Assembly (NCBI GenBank): GCA_002011125.2
Contig: MTMF02000009.1
Coordinates: 547,095-611,094 of the forward strand
Source of the DNA: Candidatus Hydrothermarchaeum profundi
GTDB lineage: Archaea > Hydrothermarchaeota > Hydrothermarchaeia > Hydrothermarchaeales > Hydrothermarchaeaceae
Length of the DNA stretch: 64,000 nt
Direction of reading: 5' to 3'
Part shown: positions 30,854 to 39,711 of the stretch, piece by piece
How the letters are laid out: the number at the start of each line of letters is the position of its first letter
How positions within the stretch are numbered: position 1 is the stretch's first letter
Program-made: the position numbers and the translations under genes
The notes under the pieces: model-generated
The model's input: the letters and a program-made list of their open reading frames with translations, nothing else
What the model was told of the DNA's origin: nothing
Database searches by the model: none

Positions 30854-31669
30854 AATTAAATCAACAACTTCGGAGATATTCCTAACCTCTATCAGATCAA
30901 TTCCTTCTATGAATCTCTTCTGGCCTCTGGGAACTAATATGATCTTGGCACCATATTCTTTAGCTGCGAGGGCTTTTTTTGTTACATGTGCTACACTCAG
31001 TATTTCTCCATTTTCATTTATTCCCCCAGTAACCATAATTCCTTCTTTTAGAGTTTTATTTTTTAGTGCAGCTATAAGAGCTACTGTCATTATGGTACCA
31101 GCACTGCTACCAGTAAGGGTTAGAGTATTATTGTAGGGATTTGAAACATGAAATATTACGTTGTATTTTGAGATTTCTTCTCCAGTAAAATTCTGGGCAA
31201 CTTTTAAAGAAATTCTCATAGTATTTTGAAAGTCCTTGGTAAAAGATACATTAGATGCATCTAGTAGCAGTTCGCCGCTTCCATATTCAAGCTTTGTTTC
31301 TAAGGGCAGAACTATCCCGGTATTAGTATCGGTTTTAACGCCTAGGATGTATGCTTTTACTATCCTCGAAAAGTTAAGGGTTTCTATAATTTCCTTTTGC
31401 TTCGAGATAGAGGCATTGAGTGCAGTAAGAGTAGCTATGACTCTTTTTAGCTCAGCTTCAGTCTTATTAAGTTCCAATTCAGATTCTTTATAATTTTTTT
31501 CTAATGCTTCAAGGCGATGCAGAGCCTCTTCATACGTTTCTTTTAAATCTTGAAAATCCGATCTAAGAGCCTTAAGTTCTTCTTTACTAGAAGCACTGTT
31601 TTTAAATTGAATGAGATTAGCGGTAACTGAAAGCAAAAGCAATAATATTAGTATCTGAGTTGTTTTCAT
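30845..31669 (-). CDS. Membrane-anchored Lon-like (S16) protease
   Basis: A 274-aa protein: N-terminal signal or anchor (ILILLLLLSVTANLIQF), a coiled coil (about residues 28-92) and a C-terminal S16 domain without any AAA+ ATPase. The catalytic Ser is in LTGSSAGTIMTVALIAAL and the Lys in SVAHVTKKALAAKEYGAK; VTGGINENGEIL is also family-typical. It matches the archaeal predicted serine protease group COG1750. ATP-independent proteolysis at the outer membrane face is inferred. It overlaps mtnA by four bases. Confidence 0.85.
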   Translation of the reverse strand: MKTTQILILLLLLSVTANLIQFKNSASSKEELKALRSDFQDLKETYEEALHRLEALEKNYKESELELNKTEAELKRVIATLTALNASISKQKEIIETLNFSRIVKAYILGVKTDTNTGIVLPLETKLEYGSGELLLDASNVSFTKDFQNTMRISLKVAQNFTGEEISKYNVIFHVSNPYNNTLTLTGSSAGTIMTVALIAALKNKTLKEGIMVTGGINENGEILSVAHVTKKALAAKEYGAKIILVPRGQKRFIEGIDLIEVRNISEVVDLILE

Positions 31670-32697
31670 GATTTAAACGCTTTTTCTATACTCTCTTCGA
31701 AGGGCGGTTTTAAAACACCTTTATCTGTTATTATCCCTGTTATATATTCATTGGGAGTTACATCAAATGCAGGATTCAAAATTCCCACGCCATCTGGGGC
31801 TACTCTTTTATTATTAAAGAACTTTATCTCTCTAGGGTTTCGATATTCAATAGGTATCTCCTCGCCAGTTGCGATGCCTACGTCAATCGTGGATAGTGGA
31901 GCAGCCACATAGAAGGGTATTCCATGTTCTTTGGCTAATATCGCTATGCCGTAGGTTCCTATCTTATTAGCTGTATCTCCGTTCCTAGCAATTCTATCAG
32001 CTCCAACGATTACCTTCGTAACTCCAAGATTCTTCATGGCAAAGGCAGCCATATTATCGCATATTAAATCGACTGGAATCTCTTCGGCAACCATTTCAAA
32101 CGTTGTCAATCGGGCTCCCTGTAATAATGGCCGAGTTTCATCAGCTATAACTTTTATCTTTTTTCCCTGTTTCCATGCCGTCTTGATTACCCCGAGTGCT
32201 GTCCCTATACCGGTTGTAGCTAGTCCTCCTGCATTACAATGAGTAAGAACTACATCTCCATCTTCTAATAAGTCAGCTCCATACTCGCCTATCCGCTTAT
32301 CAGATATCTTGGTTTCATCATGAATTCTCAGCGCTTCTTTAACTGTTTCAGCAGCTATATTTTTAGAGGATTCAGCTCTTTTAATCACTCTATCCAGCGC
32401 CCAAAATAAGTTTACGGCTGTTGGTCTTGTTTTCTTCAACCTATCGTAGGATTTCTTTAATTCTATGAGAAGGATTTCACTAGGCTTATCTGCATTTTTT
32501 ATGGCAGTAATAGCCATACCCAAAGCTGCTGCAACTCCGATAGCAGGAGCTCCTCTTATCCTTAAATTTTCAATAGCTTCAGCAATACATTCTACGTCTT
32601 CGCACTCTATATACTTGACCTCAGTAGGGAGGAGCGTTTGGTCTAATATAATAACACTAGAATCTTTTAACTCGATTACTTTCAAGCCTATCACCAC
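31666..32697 (-). CDS. mtnA: S-methyl-5-thioribose-1-phosphate isomerase
   Basis: A 343-aa member of the eIF2B-like isomerase family, length and motifs fitting MtnA: NLRIRGAPAIGVAAALGMAI, LTHCNAGGLATTGIGTALG (catalytic Cys) and VGADRIARNGDTANKIGTYG (catalytic Asp). It converts methylthioribose-1-phosphate to the ribulose form in methionine salvage. The MTA/MTI phosphorylase that makes its substrate is encoded at 58.6-59.4 kb. A ribose-1,5-bisphosphate isomerase is the main alternative, but the long N-terminal domain favours MtnA. Starts with GTG. Confidence 0.88.
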   Translation of the reverse strand: MVIGLKVIELKDSSVIILDQTLLPTEVKYIECEDVECIAEAIENLRIRGAPAIGVAAALGMAITAIKNADKPSEILLIELKKSYDRLKKTRPTAVNLFWALDRVIKRAESSKNIAAETVKEALRIHDETKISDKRIGEYGADLLEDGDVVLTHCNAGGLATTGIGTALGVIKTAWKQGKKIKVIADETRPLLQGARLTTFEMVAEEIPVDLICDNMAAFAMKNLGVTKVIVGADRIARNGDTANKIGTYGIAILAKEHGIPFYVAAPLSTIDVGIATGEEIPIEYRNPREIKFFNNKRVAPDGVGILNPAFDVTPNEYITGIITDKGVLKPPFEESIEKAFKS

Positions 32698-32733: not shown

Positions 32734-33387
32734 ATGGAACTGGTGGGGATATCAGTCTTCGCAGCTGATAGAAAAGGCCTGTTAAGAGACATAACAACGG
32801 TAATAGCCAAGCATGGAGGTAATATAAGGTATATACAGCAGTTCCCCATGGATGAGGAAGTGCAAATCTATTTTGAGCTTGAGGATATAAAGGACTTTGA
32901 GTCTTTAATCTCAGATCTTAATAAAGTTGAAAGTGTTATCTTGGTAGAAAAGACACGCTCATTTGAAAGCATTTATGGTAAACGAGTGATAGTTATTGGG
33001 GGTGGAGCTCAGGTCGCGCAAGTCGTGCTGGGTGCTGTTAGTGAGGCGGACAGGCATAATATTAGAGGCGAGAGAATAAGCGTAGATACTATACCATTAG
33101 TCGGTGAAGAAAAGCTAGCGGAAGCCATTAGGGCTGTTGGAAGGCTTCATAGGGCGGCTATCCTAGTATTAGCGGGTTCAATAATGGGAGGTGAAGTCAC
33201 TAAAGCTGTGAAAGAACTGCGCGAGGATCATGGCATCCCCGTGATCTCGCTAAATATGGCTGGAGGCGTTACAAAAGTGTGCGACCTTGTTGTCACAGAT
33301 CCGGTCCAAGCAGGAGTTATGGCTGTTATGACAGTAGCTGATACGGCTAGCTTTGATATTAATAAGGTGAGGGGGAAAAAATTCTGA
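32734..33387 (+). CDS. ACT-domain regulatory protein (DUF5612-like)
   Basis: A 217-aa protein: N-terminal ACT domain (about 1-75; [20 protein letters not shown], an amino-acid-binding fold). The C-terminal domain has [36 protein letters not shown] and [19 protein letters not shown]. This combination is known from methanogens as a predicted regulator of amino-acid metabolism and I believe is annotated DUF5612. It overlaps the larE start by four bases, so it is probably coregulated with sulfur transfer. TATA-like sequence lies about 25-30 bases upstream. Confidence 0.75.
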
Positions 33388-34169
33388 AGCAAAAACTTTT
33401 GAAATGGTTCGAAGATAAAGACGGAGCCGTAATAGCATTCTCTGGCGGGGTAGATAGCTCAGTTGTAGCAAAGGCGGCCAAAGAAGTTTTGGGTGGAAGG
33501 GCTATCGCTGTAACTTCTTTTTCACCTACATTTCCAAAATGGGAAGCAGAGTTAGCTAAAAAAGTTGCCATGGAAATAGGCATTAGATTGGAGATAGTAA
33601 ATGAAAATGAGCTGGAAAACCCGATGTTTGTTAGAAACCCGCCTAATAGGTGTTATTACTGTAGAAAAGGTCTTATCGAGGAGATAAAGAAGGTGGCGGA
33701 TGAGAATGGCATATCTCTAATTGTAGATGGTGCGAATTATGATGATATTAAGGAACATAGACCTGGTTTAAAGGCTATGAGAGAAGCTGGCGTCAGAAGT
33801 CCTCTAATTGAGCTTAAGTTAGGGAAAGAGGAAGTACGGGAGATCGCTAGAGAGTTTGGGCTTTCGGTAATGGATAAGCCTTCAATGGCGTGTCTTGCTT
33901 CTCGTATTCCTTATGGAGAATCTATTACGGGTTTTAAGTTAAAGAGAGTGGAAATGGCGGAGGATTTTTTAAGATCCATGGGAATTAAGCAATTAAGAGT
34001 TCGAAGTCATAAAAATACCGCTAGAATTGAAGTTTCTAATGGAGATGTTCTACGGGTGCTGGAGAATAGAGAAAAGATATTAAATAGGCTAACTCAGCTA
34101 GGTTTTGCCTATGTTACCCTCGATCTTGAAGGATATCGATCTGGCAGTATGGATGAAGTTTTAAAATAA
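33384..34169 (+). CDS. larE: LarE-type ATP-dependent sulfur transferase (three-Cys)
   Basis: A PP-loop enzyme with [18 protein letters not shown] (nucleotide binding) and three cysteines: RCYYCRK and, late, [14 protein letters not shown]. In LarE proteins the last Cys is the sulfur site; forms that also carry the CxxC pair hold a [4Fe-4S] cluster and can act repeatedly, using sulfide. The strong ribosome site GGTGAGGGGG (33366-33375) points to a CTG start at 33384 that overlaps the upstream TGA as CTGA; a TTG at 33399 is the conservative alternative. No larB or larC is nearby, so nickel-pincer synthesis is not indicated. The next genes are sulfur carriers. Confidence 0.85.
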
Positions 34170-34275
34170 TTCTACGATAAAATTACAATTTTGCACATGT
34201 TTATTTTTTGTAGTCGAAAATATTCTCAAAATTTCGTTTGGTATTGTTCAACAGAAATAATTTATTACTAGAAAT

Positions 34276-34303
34276 AATATTTTCACCGAAAAATATTTAT
34301 AAT
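34276..34303 (+). promoter_or_regulatory. TATA box with adjoining palindrome, candidate operator of the sulfur operon
   Basis: AATATTTTC, ACC, GAAAAATATT (34276-34297) is an inverted repeat with one extra A. It runs straight into the TATA box TTTATAAT (34296-34303), which sits 20-27 bases before GTG 34323. A third copy of the half-site, CGAAAATATT, lies upstream at 34215-34224. A repressor or activator binding here would control the whole thrC-to-SepCysS operon. Seen by eye; no regulator is identified. Confidence 0.5.
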
Positions 34304-34322
34304 AAGACATAAAGCGGTATTA

Positions 34323-35570
34323 GTGATTCTTATGATCGTCGGATTAAAATGTAGAAATTGCGGTAAGAGGTATCCCGAAGAGCCTGTAAGCATCTGTGAG
34401 GATTGCTTTGGGCCACTAGAGGTTGAATACGACTACGAGAAAATTAAAGAATCTTTGAGTATAGAGAAGATAGAGAAAGGACCTAACACGCTCTGGAGAT
34501 ATAAAGATTTACTACCAGTAAAAAGCAAGGTCGTAGATTTAAAGGCAGGCTTTACGCCTCTTCATAAGGCGGATAATCTTGCTGAAGAACTCGGTTTAAA
34601 AGAGCTTTATATTAAAAATGACTCTGTTAATCCTACTTTTTCATTTAAGGATAGGGTGGTATCAGTCGCAGTTTCTAAAGCCTTAGAGTTTGGTTTCGAT
34701 ACAGTGGGGTGTGCTTCTACAGGGAATCTAGCAAATTCTGTCGCAGCTCATGCAGCGAAAGCTAAGTTAAAATGTTATATTTTTATACCTGCTGATCTGA
34801 ATTTGGGAAAAATTATTCAAACCCTAGTTTACGGTCCGAACTTAATAGGGGTAAAGGGGAATTATGACGAAGTAAACCGACTTTGCACAGAGATCGCAGG
34901 CTATTATGACTGGGGTTTTGTTAATATAAATTTACGGCCCTACTACGCAGAGGGCTCTAAGACATTAGGCTATGAAGTTGCTGAGCAGCTAGGATGGACT
35001 ACTCCAGATAGAATTGTAGTGCCGGTAGCATCAGGGTCTCTCTTAACCAAAATATGGAAAGGTTTCAATGAGTTGGTTGAAGTTGATATCATAGATGAAG
35101 TTAAAACAAGAGTTACGGCTGCACAGGCACAAGGATGTTCTCCAGTGGTTACTGCATTTCTAACAAACAGTGAGGTGAAGCCTGTAAGGCCTAATACTAT
35201 CGAAAAGAGTCTCGCAATAGGTAATCCTGCTGACGGCTATTATGCCGTTAAAGTGCTTAAAGAATCTATGGGCACTGCAGGTGCGGCGTCAGATGAAGAA
35301 ATTATAGATGGTATAAAGCTCTTAGCAAAGACTGAGGGCATATTCACAGAGACGGCCGGGGGAGTCGTTGTAGGCACATTAAAGAAACTTGTTGAAAATG
35401 GTGAAATCGATAAAGATGAGAGAGTTGTAATATACATTACTGGCAATGGGTTAAAGACTCAAGACGTATTGGCAGATTATCTGCCTTCACTTATTAAGAT
35501 AAATCCAGATCTTAATGAATTCAATGAACTTTTGAAAAAAAAGACTACTGTAAAGGAGGTGGCTATTTAA
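34323..35570 (+). CDS. thrC: Threonine synthase (PLP-dependent)
   Basis: A 415-aa fold-type II PLP enzyme making threonine from O-phosphohomoserine. It starts with a zinc ribbon (CRNCGKRYP, CEDCFG), typical of archaeal ThrC. PLP lysine is in NPTFSFKDRVVSVA, with ASTGNLANSVAAHAAKA and VPVASGSLLTKI downstream. GTG 34323 fits a leaderless start; ATG 34332 is also possible. It is the first gene of a seven-gene overlapping operon of sulfur carriers ending with SepCysS, an unusual setting for ThrC. A thiocarboxylate-using variant making homocysteine cannot be excluded. Confidence 0.88.
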   Translation: MILMIVGLKCRNCGKRYPEEPVSICEDCFGPLEVEYDYEKIKESLSIEKIEKGPNTLWRYKDLLPVKSKVVDLKAGFTPLHKADNLAEELGLKELYIKNDSVNPTFSFKDRVVSVAVSKALEFGFDTVGCASTGNLANSVAAHAAKAKLKCYIFIPADLNLGKIIQTLVYGPNLIGVKGNYDEVNRLCTEIAGYYDWGFVNINLRPYYAEGSKTLGYEVAEQLGWTTPDRIVVPVASGSLLTKIWKGFNELVEVDIIDEVKTRVTAAQAQGCSPVVTAFLTNSEVKPVRPNTIEKSLAIGNPADGYYAVKVLKESMGTAGAASDEEIIDGIKLLAKTEGIFTETAGGVVVGTLKKLVENGEIDKDERVVIYITGNGLKTQDVLADYLPSLIKINPDLNEFNELLKKKTTVKEVAI

Positions 35571-35839
35571 TGGCTATTGTTAGGCTTGCTACTCCCCTGC
35601 GGAAATATAGTCAGGGAAAGCCTGAGATTACAGCTCCGGGGAAAACTTTGAAAGAGGTTATTATGAACATAGATTCTGCTAGCCCGGGTTTTGCTGAAAA
35701 AATCTTAGAAAATGACGAGATAAAGAGATTTGTAAATATCTATGTGAATAATGAGGATGTAAGGTTAGGGGATGGGTTGAATACAAAAGTGGGAGAAAAA
35801 GATACTATCTCTATACTTCCAGCAGTATCAGGTGGTTAA
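35570..35839 (+). CDS. Ubiquitin-like sulfur carrier (MoaD/ThiS/SAMP family)
   Basis: An 89-aa beta-grasp protein ending in the exposed diglycine LPAVSGG, the site where E1-like enzymes form an acyl-adenylate and then a thiocarboxylate. Other family marks are TLKEVIMNI, NIYVNNEDVRLGDGLNTKVG and KDTISILPA. Its ATG overlaps the thrC stop by one base (TAATG). A matching E1-like gene is two genes downstream. Possible roles: sulfur donor for molybdopterin (needed by FwdB), thiolated tRNA, or Cys/Hcy synthesis, or protein tagging. Confidence 0.88.
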   Translation: MAIVRLATPLRKYSQGKPEITAPGKTLKEVIMNIDSASPGFAEKILENDEIKRFVNIYVNNEDVRLGDGLNTKVGEKDTISILPAVSGG

Positions 35840-35842
35840 CTA

Positions 35843-36331
35843 ATGGTACTCATTTATAGTACACCTATCGAAAAGTGGGAATGTGCGTATAAGGAATGCG
35901 GAGCCAAATGTTGTACAGGCGGTAGAGAAGTTACTGCCGGGGATATAAGAAGGATAGCAAGGGCTACCGGACTTAAGCCGGAAAAGTTTGTGCATTTAGA
36001 GGATGAGAAAGGACTTTTCAGGTTAAAAAATGGTGATAGATGCGTATTCCTTAATGACGACTACTCGTGCCGTTTGCATAAAAGGGGAGTCAAGCCAATA
36101 TTCTGCCGTATGTACCCCTTTAAATTTGAAGGAGTTATTTATGCGGATGAAATAGTCCTTAAGGTTAAAGTCACGGATAACTGCCCTGGAATCGGTAGGG
36201 GACATAAGATTGGGGAAGATTTGGAGGCTACTATAGAAGAACTTGGGAATAAATTTGTAAACGAGATAAAAGATTTCTTAAGATTAAAGGGAGAAGGGTT
36301 GTCAAATGAGTCTATCATTGGAAGAGATTAA
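35843..36331 (+). CDS. YkgJ-type cysteine-cluster protein
   Basis: A 162-aa protein with the YkgJ/CxxCxxCC-type metal site: WECAYKECGAKCCTGG, then RCVFLNDDYSCRLHKRGVKP and IFCRMYPF, and a last Cys in VTDNCPGIGRG. Such proteins bind zinc or an iron-sulfur cluster and their role is not settled. It overlaps the E1-like gene by 26 bases. Position suggests a function in the sulfur relay. Confidence 0.8.
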   Translation: MVLIYSTPIEKWECAYKECGAKCCTGGREVTAGDIRRIARATGLKPEKFVHLEDEKGLFRLKNGDRCVFLNDDYSCRLHKRGVKPIFCRMYPFKFEGVIYADEIVLKVKVTDNCPGIGRGHKIGEDLEATIEELGNKFVNEIKDFLRLKGEGLSNESIIGRD

Positions 36332-37103
36332 AAGGTATAGCAGGCAACTCGTGTTGCCGGACTTTGGTAGTAGAGAGCAGAATAGGCTTAAAAAAGCCAA
36401 GGTAGCTGTTACTGGCGCTGGAGGACTTGGATGCCCGATATCAACTTACTTGACCTTAGCAGGCGTAGGAAGAATCGACATAATTGACATGGATAAGCTA
36501 GATCTTACTAATTTGAACAGACAATTTCTGTATAGTGTTGAGGATATAGGAAAGCCTAAGGCTGAACTGGCTGCTAAGCGTTTGAGCGAGATAAATCCAG
36601 AGATAGAAATCAATGGTATCACAGAAATGATAACGTACGATAACGCGTTTGACCTCCTTAAAGGATACGATGCGGTAGTTGATGGAACAGATAATTTTCC
36701 GGTTAGATATGCGGTTAATGATGCGTGTGCGGTTAACAGAGTACCTCTCTTCCATGGAGCAGTGCTGATGTATGAGGGCCGGGCTATGAGCATAATTCCT
36801 AAGGAAACTGCATGTTTTAGATGCGTTTTTCCAGAAGCACCGCCTGCAGGTACAGTGCCCACTTGTAGGGAAGCCGGCGTTATAGGCGCAATGACAGGAA
36901 TGGTTGGAGCTATTCAAGCATTAGAGGCGATAAGATATCTTGCTGGAAAAGAGATAGCCCTTAAGAATACACTATTGGTTATAAATGCCGATACTATGGA
37001 TTTCGATAAGATCAAGGTAACTAGAAAGGAAGATTGTACTGCATGCGGCGAGAAATTTATCGCTAAGCCTGTAGTTTATGTTTGCGAAGATGAGGGAAAC
37101 TAA
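36306..37103 (+). CDS. E1-like adenylyltransferase (MoeB/ThiF/HesA family)
   Basis: A 265-aa E1-like enzyme that adenylates the C-terminal glycine of a ubiquitin-like carrier. It has the nucleotide loop VTGAGGLGCPISTYLTLAG, DLTNLNRQFLYSVEDIGKPK, DGTDNFPVRYAVNDAC, a zinc site (CFRC and CTACG) and the likely catalytic Cys in AGTVPTCREAG. No rhodanese domain is attached. Its substrate is almost surely the GG-tailed carrier two genes upstream. It overlaps the YkgJ-like gene. Confidence 0.9.
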   Translation: MSLSLEEIKRYSRQLVLPDFGSREQNRLKKAKVAVTGAGGLGCPISTYLTLAGVGRIDIIDMDKLDLTNLNRQFLYSVEDIGKPKAELAAKRLSEINPEIEINGITEMITYDNAFDLLKGYDAVVDGTDNFPVRYAVNDACAVNRVPLFHGAVLMYEGRAMSIIPKETACFRCVFPEAPPAGTVPTCREAGVIGAMTGMVGAIQALEAIRYLAGKEIALKNTLLVINADTMDFDKIKVTRKEDCTACGEKFIAKPVVYVCEDEGN

Positions 37104-37104
37104 A

Positions 37105-37350
37105 ATGGAGCCTGAAGTCTTTGACCTTAGAGGGGAAAAATGCCCGGATACCTTCGTTTACACAAAAGTGAAGTTAGAAGAGCTGGCGTACTCTGGCGGT
37201 GGTCTTTTAAAGGTTATCGTAGATTATCCGCCGGCAGCTGAGAATATCCCTAGGAGTCTGAAGGAGGAGAAAATAAAGTACGAGGTTTTAGATGTTAAAA
37301 AAGTTGGAGATAAGACCTACGAATTGCTAATAAAAGCTCCTCCGGTATGA
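37105..37350 (+). CDS. TusA-like sulfur-transfer protein
   Basis: A compact protein of 81 aa from ATG 37105 (MEPEVFDLRGEKCPDTFVYT); in-frame ATGs at 37078 and 37090 are alternatives, but 37105 matches the family start and follows the E1 stop directly. The single Cys in the GEKCPDT motif corresponds to the persulfide Cys of TusA's CPxP. TusA proteins relay sulfur between a desulfurase or sulfide source and acceptors. The 3' end overlaps the DUF169 gene. Confidence 0.8.
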   Translation: MEPEVFDLRGEKCPDTFVYTKVKLEELAYSGGGLLKVIVDYPPAAENIPRSLKEEKIKYEVLDVKKVGDKTYELLIKAPPV

Positions 37351-38279
37351 TGATTATGGAAAACATAAGAGCACATTTAGGGATGAAGTACAACTTAGTT
37401 GGGGTTAAAATCCTCAAGGAAAAACCAGTAGATATAGAAAAGCCTACTAGAAAGCTTCGTTACTGTGAGATGGTAAGAAAAGCTGCTAATGGCGAAGTGA
37501 TTACTGCGGAGCATGAGGATATAGCATGCCCCAATGCTGAGGTAACCCTCGGTTTTGTTGAGCCTGTGTATGTTGACATACAGCCACGTATTTCTCCAGC
37601 GGAAACTAAAGTGGTTAAGGTTGGTCCATTAGATAAAATTCGAGATCCTGATATCATACTAGCGATTCTTAATCCGAGGCAGGCAATGGAGGTTGCGTCC
37701 ATAATGGACGGCCTTGAAGCAAAGTTTGCGGGCAGTATGGCGGTTTGCGGAGAGGCTACCGCTAAGCCATATATGGAGAAAAAAAGTAATGTAACGATGC
37801 TTTGCGGTGGAGCGAGGACTTTTGCGGATTTCAGGGATTCAGATCTGATAGTAGGAGGTCCCCCTGAGTTTTTTGAAGAACTGTCAAAGAGAATATCTGC
37901 TCTTTCAAAGACCTGCGTGGCTCTTTGCGGTTGCAAAACAAGTGACCTCTCTCCACGTATAATTGAGAGCTTTAGGAAGATAGGCTTCGAGAAGGGAACT
38001 GACTATTTCTTTGGCAAGGTTGATGGTACAAATGTTAGGATATATTTAAACAAAGACACGCATGGTAAGATAAAGTACATAACTGTGCATATACCCCTTA
38101 GGGGAGTTGAAGTAAAAGCAAAAGAACCTTTGATAGTCAAGAAGAGGGGAAATTGGACAGATGTGGCGATGACCTTCGGTTTAGGCGAGGCGATTGATTT
38201 AAACACTGGCAGGGGACTCAAAGAGGCTATTATGGATATACTCAAAAAGGTTAGTGATTCAAAGGTAATAGCCAGATGA
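37347..38279 (+). CDS. DUF169 family protein
   Basis: A 310-aa protein matching DUF169: VGVKILKEKPVDIEKPTRKL, RYCEMVRKAANGEVITAEHE, CPNAEVTLGF, AVCGEATAKPYMEKK and MLCGGARTFADFRDSDL. The conserved cysteines suggest metal or cluster binding. A cysteine-rich C-terminal part (CVALCGCKTSD) is present. The family is common in anaerobes and often sits near C1 or corrinoid genes, and its function is unknown. Here it overlaps both TusA-like and SepCysS genes by four bases, so it is likely to share their process. Confidence 0.8.
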   Translation: MMIMENIRAHLGMKYNLVGVKILKEKPVDIEKPTRKLRYCEMVRKAANGEVITAEHEDIACPNAEVTLGFVEPVYVDIQPRISPAETKVVKVGPLDKIRDPDIILAILNPRQAMEVASIMDGLEAKFAGSMAVCGEATAKPYMEKKSNVTMLCGGARTFADFRDSDLIVGGPPEFFEELSKRISALSKTCVALCGCKTSDLSPRIIESFRKIGFEKGTDYFFGKVDGTNVRIYLNKDTHGKIKYITVHIPLRGVEVKAKEPLIVKKRGNWTDVAMTFGLGEAIDLNTGRGLKEAIMDILKKVSDSKVIAR

Positions 38280-39460
38280 GTGTATCACCCGAGTTTTCTG
38301 CTATGGATGTGGGTAATTTGAGTTACAGGTATAAAGACTTCATAATAATAAATCCGCTGATGAGGGGGGGAATAGTGCCTAAGAGTGTTACTGAGAGGCT
38401 CTGTGATGAAGGATGGTTAGAAGTAGGGTATAATCTCTGCCACGATTGCATTGAAGGTAGATCGAGTCTAATAACAAAGCCGAATGTGAAGGAATTTCTT
38501 TCGGAGATAGCTGTATTTTTTGGTGGTGACGAGGCAGAGCATACCTTTGGATGTAGGGCAGCGCAGTTTGCAGTCATGAAAACCATATCAGAGGTATCTC
38601 CGGATGGGGTAGTTTTATCGGATCCTAACAGCCACTACTCTACGAACATAGCTGCGGAGATGTGTGGTCTGAAAGTCGTTGAGTCACCGCATACGGGATA
38701 TCCTGAATATAAAGTTGAGGTGGACTCCGTTATTGAGAAGATAGAGGAGATAGGTAATCCTGCTCTTGTGGTAATGACTCATGCTGATCCGTATTATGGG
38801 AACCTAGCTCCAGTTAAAGAAATAGGTAAAGTATGTGCTGAGAAAGAGATACCTTATATGGTGAACTCCGCTTATACTGGCGGTGTAATGCCTATCAATA
38901 TGAAGGATTTAAACGCCGACTTCTTGACTTTATCCGCTCATAAGTCGATGGCGTCTATTGGTCCTCTAGGATTTCTAGTCACAACTTATGAGTGGTCTAG
39001 AAAGGTATTTGCGCTTTCTAAGTCTAAGCCGGATTGGACTGGCAGGGCGTTTGGTAAAAAAATCCCTAATGTCTTTGGCTGCAGTATTGGCGGCCTCCCC
39101 TTGGTCTGTGCAATGAATTCATTCCCCTATGTTAAGGAGAGAGTCAAAAAATGGGACGAGGAGATAAATAAAACCAATAAGTTTATTGATGCAATGGAGG
39201 ACCTGGGAGATATAATGCTTCTGGGTGAGCGGCCTCATAGGCATCATCTTCTTCATTTTGAGACGCCTCTCTTCTGGGAGATATCTAAAAAGCATAGGCG
39301 GAAAGGATTCTTCCTTGCGGAAGAAATGATAAAACGAGGCATTGTTGGCCTGCACAAGGGTCTAAGCAAGCATATAAAGCTGTCGGTATATGGGCTCAGC
39401 GATGAAGAGGTCAGCAAGGTGTTAGAGGCGTTTAAAGAGGTTGCTGAAATATCAGCTTAA
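38276..39460 (+). CDS. pscS: O-phosphoseryl-tRNA(Cys):cysteinyl-tRNA synthase (SepCysS)
   Basis: A 394-aa PLP enzyme converting Sep-tRNA(Cys) to Cys-tRNA(Cys). It has the N-terminal FIIINPLMRGGIVPKSV region, conserved cysteines in GYNLCHDCIEG, VVMTHADPYYGNLAPV, and the PLP-lysine region TLSAHKSMASIGPLGFLV. It is the last gene of the operon carrying a carrier/E1/TusA set. SepRS is not in the window. SepCysS needs an external sulfur source whose identity is not settled in most archaea, so this operon is a strong candidate for it. Confidence 0.92.
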   Translation: MSVSPEFSAMDVGNLSYRYKDFIIINPLMRGGIVPKSVTERLCDEGWLEVGYNLCHDCIEGRSSLITKPNVKEFLSEIAVFFGGDEAEHTFGCRAAQFAVMKTISEVSPDGVVLSDPNSHYSTNIAAEMCGLKVVESPHTGYPEYKVEVDSVIEKIEEIGNPALVVMTHADPYYGNLAPVKEIGKVCAEKEIPYMVNSAYTGGVMPINMKDLNADFLTLSAHKSMASIGPLGFLVTTYEWSRKVFALSKSKPDWTGRAFGKKIPNVFGCSIGGLPLVCAMNSFPYVKERVKKWDEEINKTNKFIDAMEDLGDIMLLGERPHRHHLLHFETPLFWEISKKHRRKGFFLAEEMIKRGIVGLHKGLSKHIKLSVYGLSDEEVSKVLEAFKEVAEISA

Positions 39461-39711
39461 TCACTAAATCCTCTGATTAAGACCTCAACGTTGGCGTCTT
39501 TTACTCCTTCAATTTTTTTAATTTCTCTCTCACCTCTAACGGCTAGCACGAAATTATATGGGCAGCTGCTCAAGATGCCTCGCATCTTAACATTTACCAC
39601 TTCACCCTCTATTTTTACTTCTTCTATGAGGCCTAGGTCAACTATGTTGCTGCCTGCCCTTATGCTGTGCACTCTTCTTAGTGCTCCTAATACTTCTTCC
39701 TCCGTTACCAT
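39457..39711 (-). CDS. DUF59 (MIP18/SufT-like) protein
   Basis: An 84-aa DUF59 protein: EVLGALRRVHSIRAGSNIVD, LGLIEEVKIEGEVVNVKMRG and the conserved SCPY cysteine motif. The family assists iron-sulfur cluster assembly. It overlaps the nadC stop region by 7 bases and is convergent with SepCysS. NadA in this NAD module needs a [4Fe-4S] cluster, a possible link. Confidence 0.85.
   Translation of the reverse strand: MVTEEEVLGALRRVHSIRAGSNIVDLGLIEEVKIEGEVVNVKMRGILSSCPYNFVLAVRGEREIKKIEGVKDANVEVLIRGFSD

What the first reader, a model, noticed from the sequence alone, without database searches (positions are those of the whole stretch)
33384..39460. Candidate sulfur-relay operon ending in SepCysS
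Seen: a three-Cys LarE and then seven overlapping genes: thrC, a GG-tailed ubiquitin-like carrier, a YkgJ-type Cys protein, an E1-like adenylyltransferase, a TusA-like Cys protein, a DUF169 protein and SepCysS. Known: LarE proteins with CxxC plus a third Cys can hold sulfur on a [4Fe-4S] cluster, E1/carrier pairs make thiocarboxylates, TusA relays persulfide, and SepCysS needs a sulfur donor that is unsettled in most archaea. Inference: these form one pathway delivering sulfur to Sep-tRNA(Cys), with YkgJ-like and DUF169 proteins as new parts. The contiguous set is, as far as I know, not described as a system.
Basis: partly seen in the sequence, partly recalled or inferred. Interest (0 to 1): 0.8.

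Follow-up and report, generated by a model that had tools for sequence, protein, structure and literature searches.

The report
Archaeal homocysteine operon joined to SepCysS
The gene cluster is real and conserved, but its carrier, E1 and TusA proteins most likely feed sulfur to a look-alike of threonine synthase that makes homocysteine (the methionine precursor), with the tRNA-dependent cysteine enzyme SepCysS attached at the end, so one archaeal operon probably makes both sulfur amino acids.

Summary
In detail: thrC, GG-tailed carrier, YkgJ-type protein, E1, TusA-like protein, DUF169 and SepCysS are packed on one strand (34332-39460). LarE lies apart behind a 162-nt gap. The block recurs in the order (Hydrothermarchaeota): with SepCysS in five relatives, without SepCysS in six, so it is not unique to this genome. 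The interpretation changes. The "thrC" is a paralogue; the genome has a canonical ThrC elsewhere. It belongs to a deep clade spread over bacteria and archaea, apart from canonical ThrC (support 100/99). 75 of 80 relatives have a carrier gene next door. All nine SAM riboswitches found in 33 bacterial loci sit just upstream of this gene. The genome has no DUF39, MetY/MetB or CysK, and has separate MoaD-MoaE and TtuA carriers. This fits the MetM/MetO homocysteine synthase reported from Streptomyces in 2024: O-phosphohomoserine plus carrier sulfur gives homocysteine. CPxT-type TusA and E1 sit with this gene in bacteria without SepCysS, so they primarily serve homocysteine. I read the operon as a sulfur-amino-acid unit: MetM-type homocysteine synthesis plus SepCysS. 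DUF169, found beside SepCysS even without the rest, is the best candidate link to Sep-tRNA; its role and YkgJ's remain inference.

The parts
34332..35570 (+). ThrC2: threonine-synthase paralogue, MetM-type homocysteine synthase candidate (PLP fold type II)
   Evidence: TIGR00260 312.5 bits; paralogue of the canonical ThrC at G000:C9:408843-410045 (42-43% id); 57-79% id to the carrier-paired clade; tree 100/99
35570..35839 (+). Ubiquitin-like sulfur carrier ending in GG (MetO-like)
   Evidence: ThiS PF02597; ILPAVSGG tail identical in 7 homologues; carrier next to ThrC2 in 75/80 loci
35843..36331 (+). YkgJ-type CxxCxxCC cysteine-rich protein, role unknown
   Evidence: PF03692 34 bits; conserved in the order; no such gene in the 78 bacterial loci
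36306..37103 (+). E1-like (MoeB/UbaA) adenylyltransferase, the only ThiF-family protein found in the genome
   Evidence: PF00899 279.9 bits; single match in G000; conserved PTCREAG and CxxC pairs
37105..37350 (+). TusA-like sulfur relay protein, CPDT instead of CPxP (a longer frame starts at 37078)
   Evidence: PF01206 56 bits; CPxT also in ThrC2 loci of Nitrospirota and in G044
37347..38279 (+). DUF169/COG2043 protein with six conserved cysteines (C40, C61, C134, C153, C194, C196)
   Evidence: PF02596 112 bits; cysteines kept down to about 30% id; beside SepCysS in G020 and G044 where ThrC2 is not attached to it
38276..39460 (+). SepCysS, Sep-tRNA:Cys-tRNA synthase
   Evidence: TIGR02539 365.9 and PRK09331 394 bits; CxxC, third Cys and PLP Lys conserved, aligned to 3wkr
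34290..34305 (+). AT-rich, TATA-like stretch upstream of thrC2 (possible archaeal promoter)
   Evidence: by eye; not tested
33399..34169 (+). LarE-type ATP-dependent sulfurtransferase, neighbour, loosely associated
   Evidence: TIGR00268 310.7 bits; next to the block in G001 and G005 and near a bacterial ThrC2 locus L133

Best explanation
The operon is a sulfur-amino-acid unit. The E1 adenylates the GG tail of the carrier, and TusA (CPxT type) brings persulfide sulfur to make a carrier thiocarboxylate. The ThrC paralogue (ThrC2, MetM type) uses that sulfur to replace the phosphate of O-phosphohomoserine and give homocysteine. SepCysS at the end of the operon converts Sep-tRNA(Cys), made by SepRS elsewhere in the genome, to Cys-tRNA(Cys). 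Shown here: gene content, clade membership, carrier pairing, riboswitch position in bacterial relatives, absence of other known homocysteine and cysteine synthases. Inferred: substrate, thiocarboxylate chemistry, direction of sulfur flow, and that DUF169 (perhaps with TusA and YkgJ) supplies or protects sulfur for SepCysS.
For: ThrC2 is a paralogue of a canonical ThrC in the genome and falls in a clade split from canonical ThrC at 100/99, with SFKDR[VP] in place of SFKDRG. Carrier next door in 75/80 relatives, E1 in 28, TusA in 11. Nine SAM riboswitches in 33 bacterial loci, all just upstream of ThrC2 on its strand. The genome has no HcyBio/DUF39, no real MetY/MetB (best 27 bits against 408 in G005) and no CysK/CysM among six PALP proteins. 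DUF39 is found in G021 and G023, which lack ThrC2. MetM (Streptomyces) makes homocysteine from O-phosphohomoserine, with a carrier-type gene metO and a SAM riboswitch (Hasebe 2024, as described in PMC12172450). Other carriers sit with MoaE and TtuA. SepRS is present with a translin-like (TRAX) gene.
Against: The Microcystis homologue made threonine from O-phosphohomoserine in vitro and had threonine deaminase activity; its MetM activity stayed unclear (PMC12172450). No MetE- or MetH-type methionine synthase was found in the order; MesC is possible, since the Methanosarcina control, which has MesC, also did not match. G007 has ThrC2 and DUF39 together. No archaeal ThrC2 has been assayed as far as I could find. 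Streptomyces MetM itself was not available for the tree. ASTGNLA and TEGIFTE[TP] were used as search patterns, so their conservation loci is not independent.
Confidence: 0.78

Rival explanations
1. One reading: carrier, E1, TusA, YkgJ and DUF169 form one relay whose end point is SepCysS and Sep-tRNA(Cys).
For: Same-strand overlapping genes ending in SepCysS in six genomes including the window. DUF169 adjoins SepCysS in G020 and G044 and was reported near SepRS (PMC8762117). SepCysS works through persulfides (PMC5424206).
Against: ThrC2-carrier-E1-TusA modules occur in many bacterial loci without SepCysS. The six-gene block lacks SepCysS in six order members. In the window the carrier lies next to thrC2.
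Confidence: 0.15
2. ThrC2 is a thiocarboxylate-dependent cysteine synthase acting on O-phosphoserine (CysM/CysO-like), so the operon makes cysteine both free and on tRNA.
For: No CysK/CysM in the genome; SepRS implies an O-phosphoserine supply; cysteate synthase, a ThrC relative, uses O-phosphoserine (own knowledge). Two CysRS-like genes would use free cysteine.
Against: SAM riboswitches upstream of bacterial members point to methionine; Streptomyces MetM makes homocysteine; no other homocysteine synthase was found in the genome.
Confidence: 0.12
3. ThrC2 is simply a second threonine synthase and the neighbourhood is housekeeping sulfur transfer (Moco, tRNA thiolation) through the only E1.
For: TIGR00260 score above cut-off; the E1 is the only one found and must also serve other carriers; cyanobacterial homologue with threonine synthase activity in vitro.
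Against: A canonical ThrC exists in the genome; deep separate clade; SAM riboswitch control in bacteria; the other two carriers sit with their own acceptors.
Confidence: 0.07

Closest known systems
MetM/MetO homocysteine synthase of Streptomyces (Hasebe 2024, doi 10.1128/aem.01247-24; read only through PMC12172450)
   Same: ThrC-like PLP enzyme with a sulfur carrier gene; bacterial relatives of the window gene lie behind SAM riboswitches as metM does.
   Different: Archaeal; with E1, CPxT TusA, YkgJ and DUF169 in one operon, and SepCysS at the end; no riboswitch in the window.
SepRS-SepCysS tRNA-dependent cysteine pathway (PMC5424206, PMC8762117)
   Same: SepCysS with conserved cysteines and PLP lysine; SepRS next to a translin-like (TRAX) gene.
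   Different: SepCysS is tied to a homocysteine module; DUF169 adjoins SepCysS rather than SepRS here.
DUF39/NIL-ferredoxin/COG2122 homocysteine pathway of methanogens and Desulfovibrio (PMC5764234)
   Same: Anaerobic sulfide assimilation into homocysteine; a factor shared between homocysteine synthesis and SepCysS (COG2122) was proposed there too.
   Different: DUF39 is absent from the window genome and most of its order; the precursor would be O-phosphohomoserine, not aspartate semialdehyde.
CysM/CysO/MoeZ cysteine synthase of Mycobacterium and HcyS/HcyF system of Wolinella (own knowledge)
   Same: E1-made carrier thiocarboxylate gives sulfur to a PLP enzyme.
   Different: The PLP enzyme here is a ThrC paralogue; the carrier ends in GG as encoded, and no protease gene lies in the operon.

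Membership tests
MetM/MetO homocysteine synthase | ThrC-like enzyme in a clade distinct from canonical threonine synthase | tested here: met
   Tree 100/99; Streptomyces MetM itself was not available to place
MetM/MetO homocysteine synthase | Sulfur carrier gene adjacent | tested here: met
   Carrier overlaps thrC2 by 1 nt; 75/80 relatives
MetM/MetO homocysteine synthase | Control by a SAM riboswitch (seen in Streptomyces; not strictly defining, since the Microcystis homologue lacks it) | tested here: not met
   None in the window, as expected for an archaeon; 9/33 bacterial relatives have one
MetM/MetO homocysteine synthase | Makes homocysteine from O-phosphohomoserine | not testable with these tools
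   Needs an enzyme assay
SepCysS | Family score above curated cut-off | tested here: met
   TIGR02539 365.9 against 365.25 bits; PRK09331 394.1 against 301
SepCysS | CxxC plus third Cys and PLP lysine | tested here: met
   Alignment to 3wkr; motifs across homologues
SepCysS | SepRS in the same genome | tested here: met
   TIGR00470 749.6 bits, cut-off 380.65
Canonical threonine synthase | SFKDRG active-site motif and canonical clade | tested here: not met
   SFKDRV and separate clade; the canonical copy is elsewhere
MoaD of molybdopterin synthase | Pairs with MoaE | tested here: not met
   MoaE lies next to another carrier, G000:C9:379092-379328
CysM/CysO cysteine synthase | PLP enzyme of the CysK/CysM family | tested here: not met
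   CysK/CysM models are not among the best 25 for ThrC2; ThrC models score highest

The most novel reading that the evidence does not exclude
One relay (TusA, then either E1/carrier or DUF169) splits sulfur between a thiocarboxylate-dependent homocysteine synthase and tRNA-bound cysteine synthesis, with DUF169 as a new persulfide or Fe-S donor to SepCysS. This would name the missing sulfur donor of SepCysS in this lineage.
Probability: 0.25. Interest if true: 0.8.

Novelty: new variant of a known kind. Interest (0 to 1): 0.55.

Why it matters
How anaerobic archaea make homocysteine and which protein gives sulfur to SepCysS are open. The cluster offers a concrete, testable answer to the first for Hydrothermarchaeota (a ThrC paralogue with its own carrier) and a short list (DUF169, TusA, YkgJ) for the second. 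The same ThrC2 occurs in Aquificota, in some with the carrier next door; PMC5764234 names Aquifex among organisms with no known homocysteine route. Many genes annotated as threonine synthase in bacteria and archaea may be methionine genes.

Tried and rejected
AlphaFold models of DUF169 (mean pLDDT 58) and YkgJ (52) from three-sequence alignments were too poor for a fold search. No PDB relative by sequence for DUF169, and only chance-level ones for YkgJ. The Hasebe 2024 paper is not held. The literature on DUF169 gave only a listing beside a sulfite exporter gene in Desulfovibrio and a STRING link to YedE. No tRNA gene and no Rfam match in the window. Rejected: carrier as MoaD (MoaD-MoaE elsewhere); LarE as a fixed part of the operon; thrC as the only threonine synthase.
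Full report
Observation. The window lies in an archaeal genome of 2.19 Mb in 19 contigs, 97.65% complete. Seven genes run on the + strand from thrC (ATG 34332) to the end of SepCysS (39460), with overlaps of 1, 26, 4 and 4 nt and one 3-nt gap. LarE ends 162 nt before thrC and is a neighbour rather than a member; among the relatives examined it stands next to the block in G001 and G005 only.

Conservation. Relatives were searched for SepCysS and for the ThrC paralogue and their surroundings read. ThrC-carrier-YkgJ-E1-TusA-DUF169-SepCysS lies on one contig in G002, G004 and G008 (in G004 the contig ends inside SepCysS), in G001 (likewise) and, without YkgJ, in G007. In G003, G005, G006 and G011 contig ends cut the block, but the fragments fit (DUF169 directly before SepCysS). 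In G009, G013, G014, G015, G018 and G019 the six-gene block is kept and SepCysS lies elsewhere. G016 has SepCysS and SepRS, but neither ThrC2 nor an E1 was found (93% complete). Outside the order, G044 has DUF169-SepCysS at one contig end and SepCysS near a separate operon carrier-E1-TusA-(unknown)-ThrC2 on another contig, with a divergent regulator gene between. G020 has DUF169-SepCysS alone. DUF169 is therefore the gene that stays with both halves; SepCysS and the ThrC block are separable.

What the ThrC is. Most order members with the block also have a second ThrC at about 40-45% identity. In the window genome it is G000:C9:408843-410045, TIGR00260 376 bits. The window's ThrC (ThrC2) has 57-79% identity to a clade in Aquificota, Nitrospirota, Omnitrophota, Chloroflexota, Cyanobacteriota, Rokuibacteriota and others, and 54% to a copy in G024 (by its content I take G024 for a Nitrososphaerota member) that is followed directly by a carrier-E1 fusion gene. 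A maximum-likelihood tree separates this clade from canonical ThrC with 100/99 support. All 32 members read SFKDR[VP] where canonical copies read SFKDRG. The ASTGNLA motif cannot be counted for loci because it was a search pattern, but it also holds in the loci found by whole-protein search.

The carrier link. 75 of the 80 loci have a ThiS-like carrier downstream; in three of the five exceptions the contig ends within 0.7 kb of the gene. E1 lies within 3.5 kb in 28 and TusA in 11. The TusA-like proteins of most Nitrospirota loci, of G044 and of the order carry CPxT instead of CPxP. These bacterial modules have no SepCysS (the one match, in L197, is a weak 41-bit hit), so the carrier, E1 and TusA belong to ThrC2 first.

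The methionine link. Rfam scans of 33 bacterial loci found nine SAM riboswitches (RF00162). All nine lie on the ThrC2 strand and end 71 to 501 nt before the ThrC2 match (L123, L131, L132, L149, L156, L157, L160, L175, L176). This was not used to pick the loci. Hasebe et al. 2024 reported MetM of Streptomyces as a homocysteine synthase acting on O-phosphohomoserine. PMC12172450 describes it with a carrier-type gene metO, a SAM riboswitch and homologues in cyanobacteria; I could not read the original.

The genome's other routes. HcyBio/DUF39 is absent from the window genome and from 23 of 26 genomes searched; it is found in G021 and G023, which lack ThrC2, and in G007, which has both. No genuine Cys_Met_Meta_PP enzyme was found except in G005. 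The six PALP proteins are ThrC, ThrC2, threonine ammonia-lyase, two TrpB-like proteins (by eye) and cysteate synthase, so no CysK/CysM. Methionine synthase was not found with MetE or MetH models. Methanosarcina, which has MesC (PMC7857596), was also negative, so this absence says little. The genome has two other carriers, one beside MoaE and one beside a TtuA-like gene (TtuA by eye), and one E1, which must then charge all three. SepRS is present with a translin-like gene, and two CysRS-like genes exist.

Mechanism. Most likely the E1 adenylates the carrier; TusA or sulfide gives a thiocarboxylate; ThrC2 uses it on O-phosphohomoserine to give homocysteine; SepCysS uses persulfide on its own cysteines to convert Sep-tRNA(Cys). 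Both terminal sulfur-fixing enzymes for the sulfur amino acids would thus be co-expressed. The DUF169 protein has six cysteines conserved down to about 30% identity, and YkgJ has a CxxCxxCC-type set. Both could carry Fe-S clusters or persulfide, but this is inference; structure models were too poor to use. A factor shared between homocysteine synthesis and SepCysS has been proposed before, as COG2122 in methanogens (PMC5764234).

Verdict. The finding is real and conserved. Whether sulfur from the same relay reaches SepCysS stays open, and DUF169 is the protein to test.

Noticed in passing
L225 (G000:C9:1571000-1579000): Cysteate synthase (TIGR03844, 495 bits) next to a fused sulfopyruvate decarboxylase (ComDE) and HdrDE-like genes (the latter by eye): a coenzyme M biosynthesis cluster in a Hydrothermarchaeota genome.
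   Followed up: partly
window 31666-32697 (-): S-methyl-5-thioribose-1-phosphate isomerase (methionine salvage) lies about 1.6 kb upstream of the operon on the other strand.
   Followed up: no
L112:7374-9914: In G024 a ThrC2 gene is followed directly by one gene fusing carrier, E1 and a C-terminal domain; the internal GG of the carrier would have to work inside a fusion or be cut.
   Followed up: no
L141, L142, L148, L152, L194: In Nitrospirota the canonical thrC often lies directly behind the ThrC2-carrier pair, so both users of O-phosphohomoserine are adjacent.
   Followed up: no
window 36306-37103 (G000:C9:583430-584134): The operon E1 is the only ThiF-family protein found in the genome, against three carriers; it probably serves Moco and tRNA thiolation too.
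   Followed up: partly
window 39457-39711 (-): A SufT/MIP18-type Fe-S assembly protein gene meets the 3' end of SepCysS head-on; the same neighbour is seen in G001.
   Followed up: no
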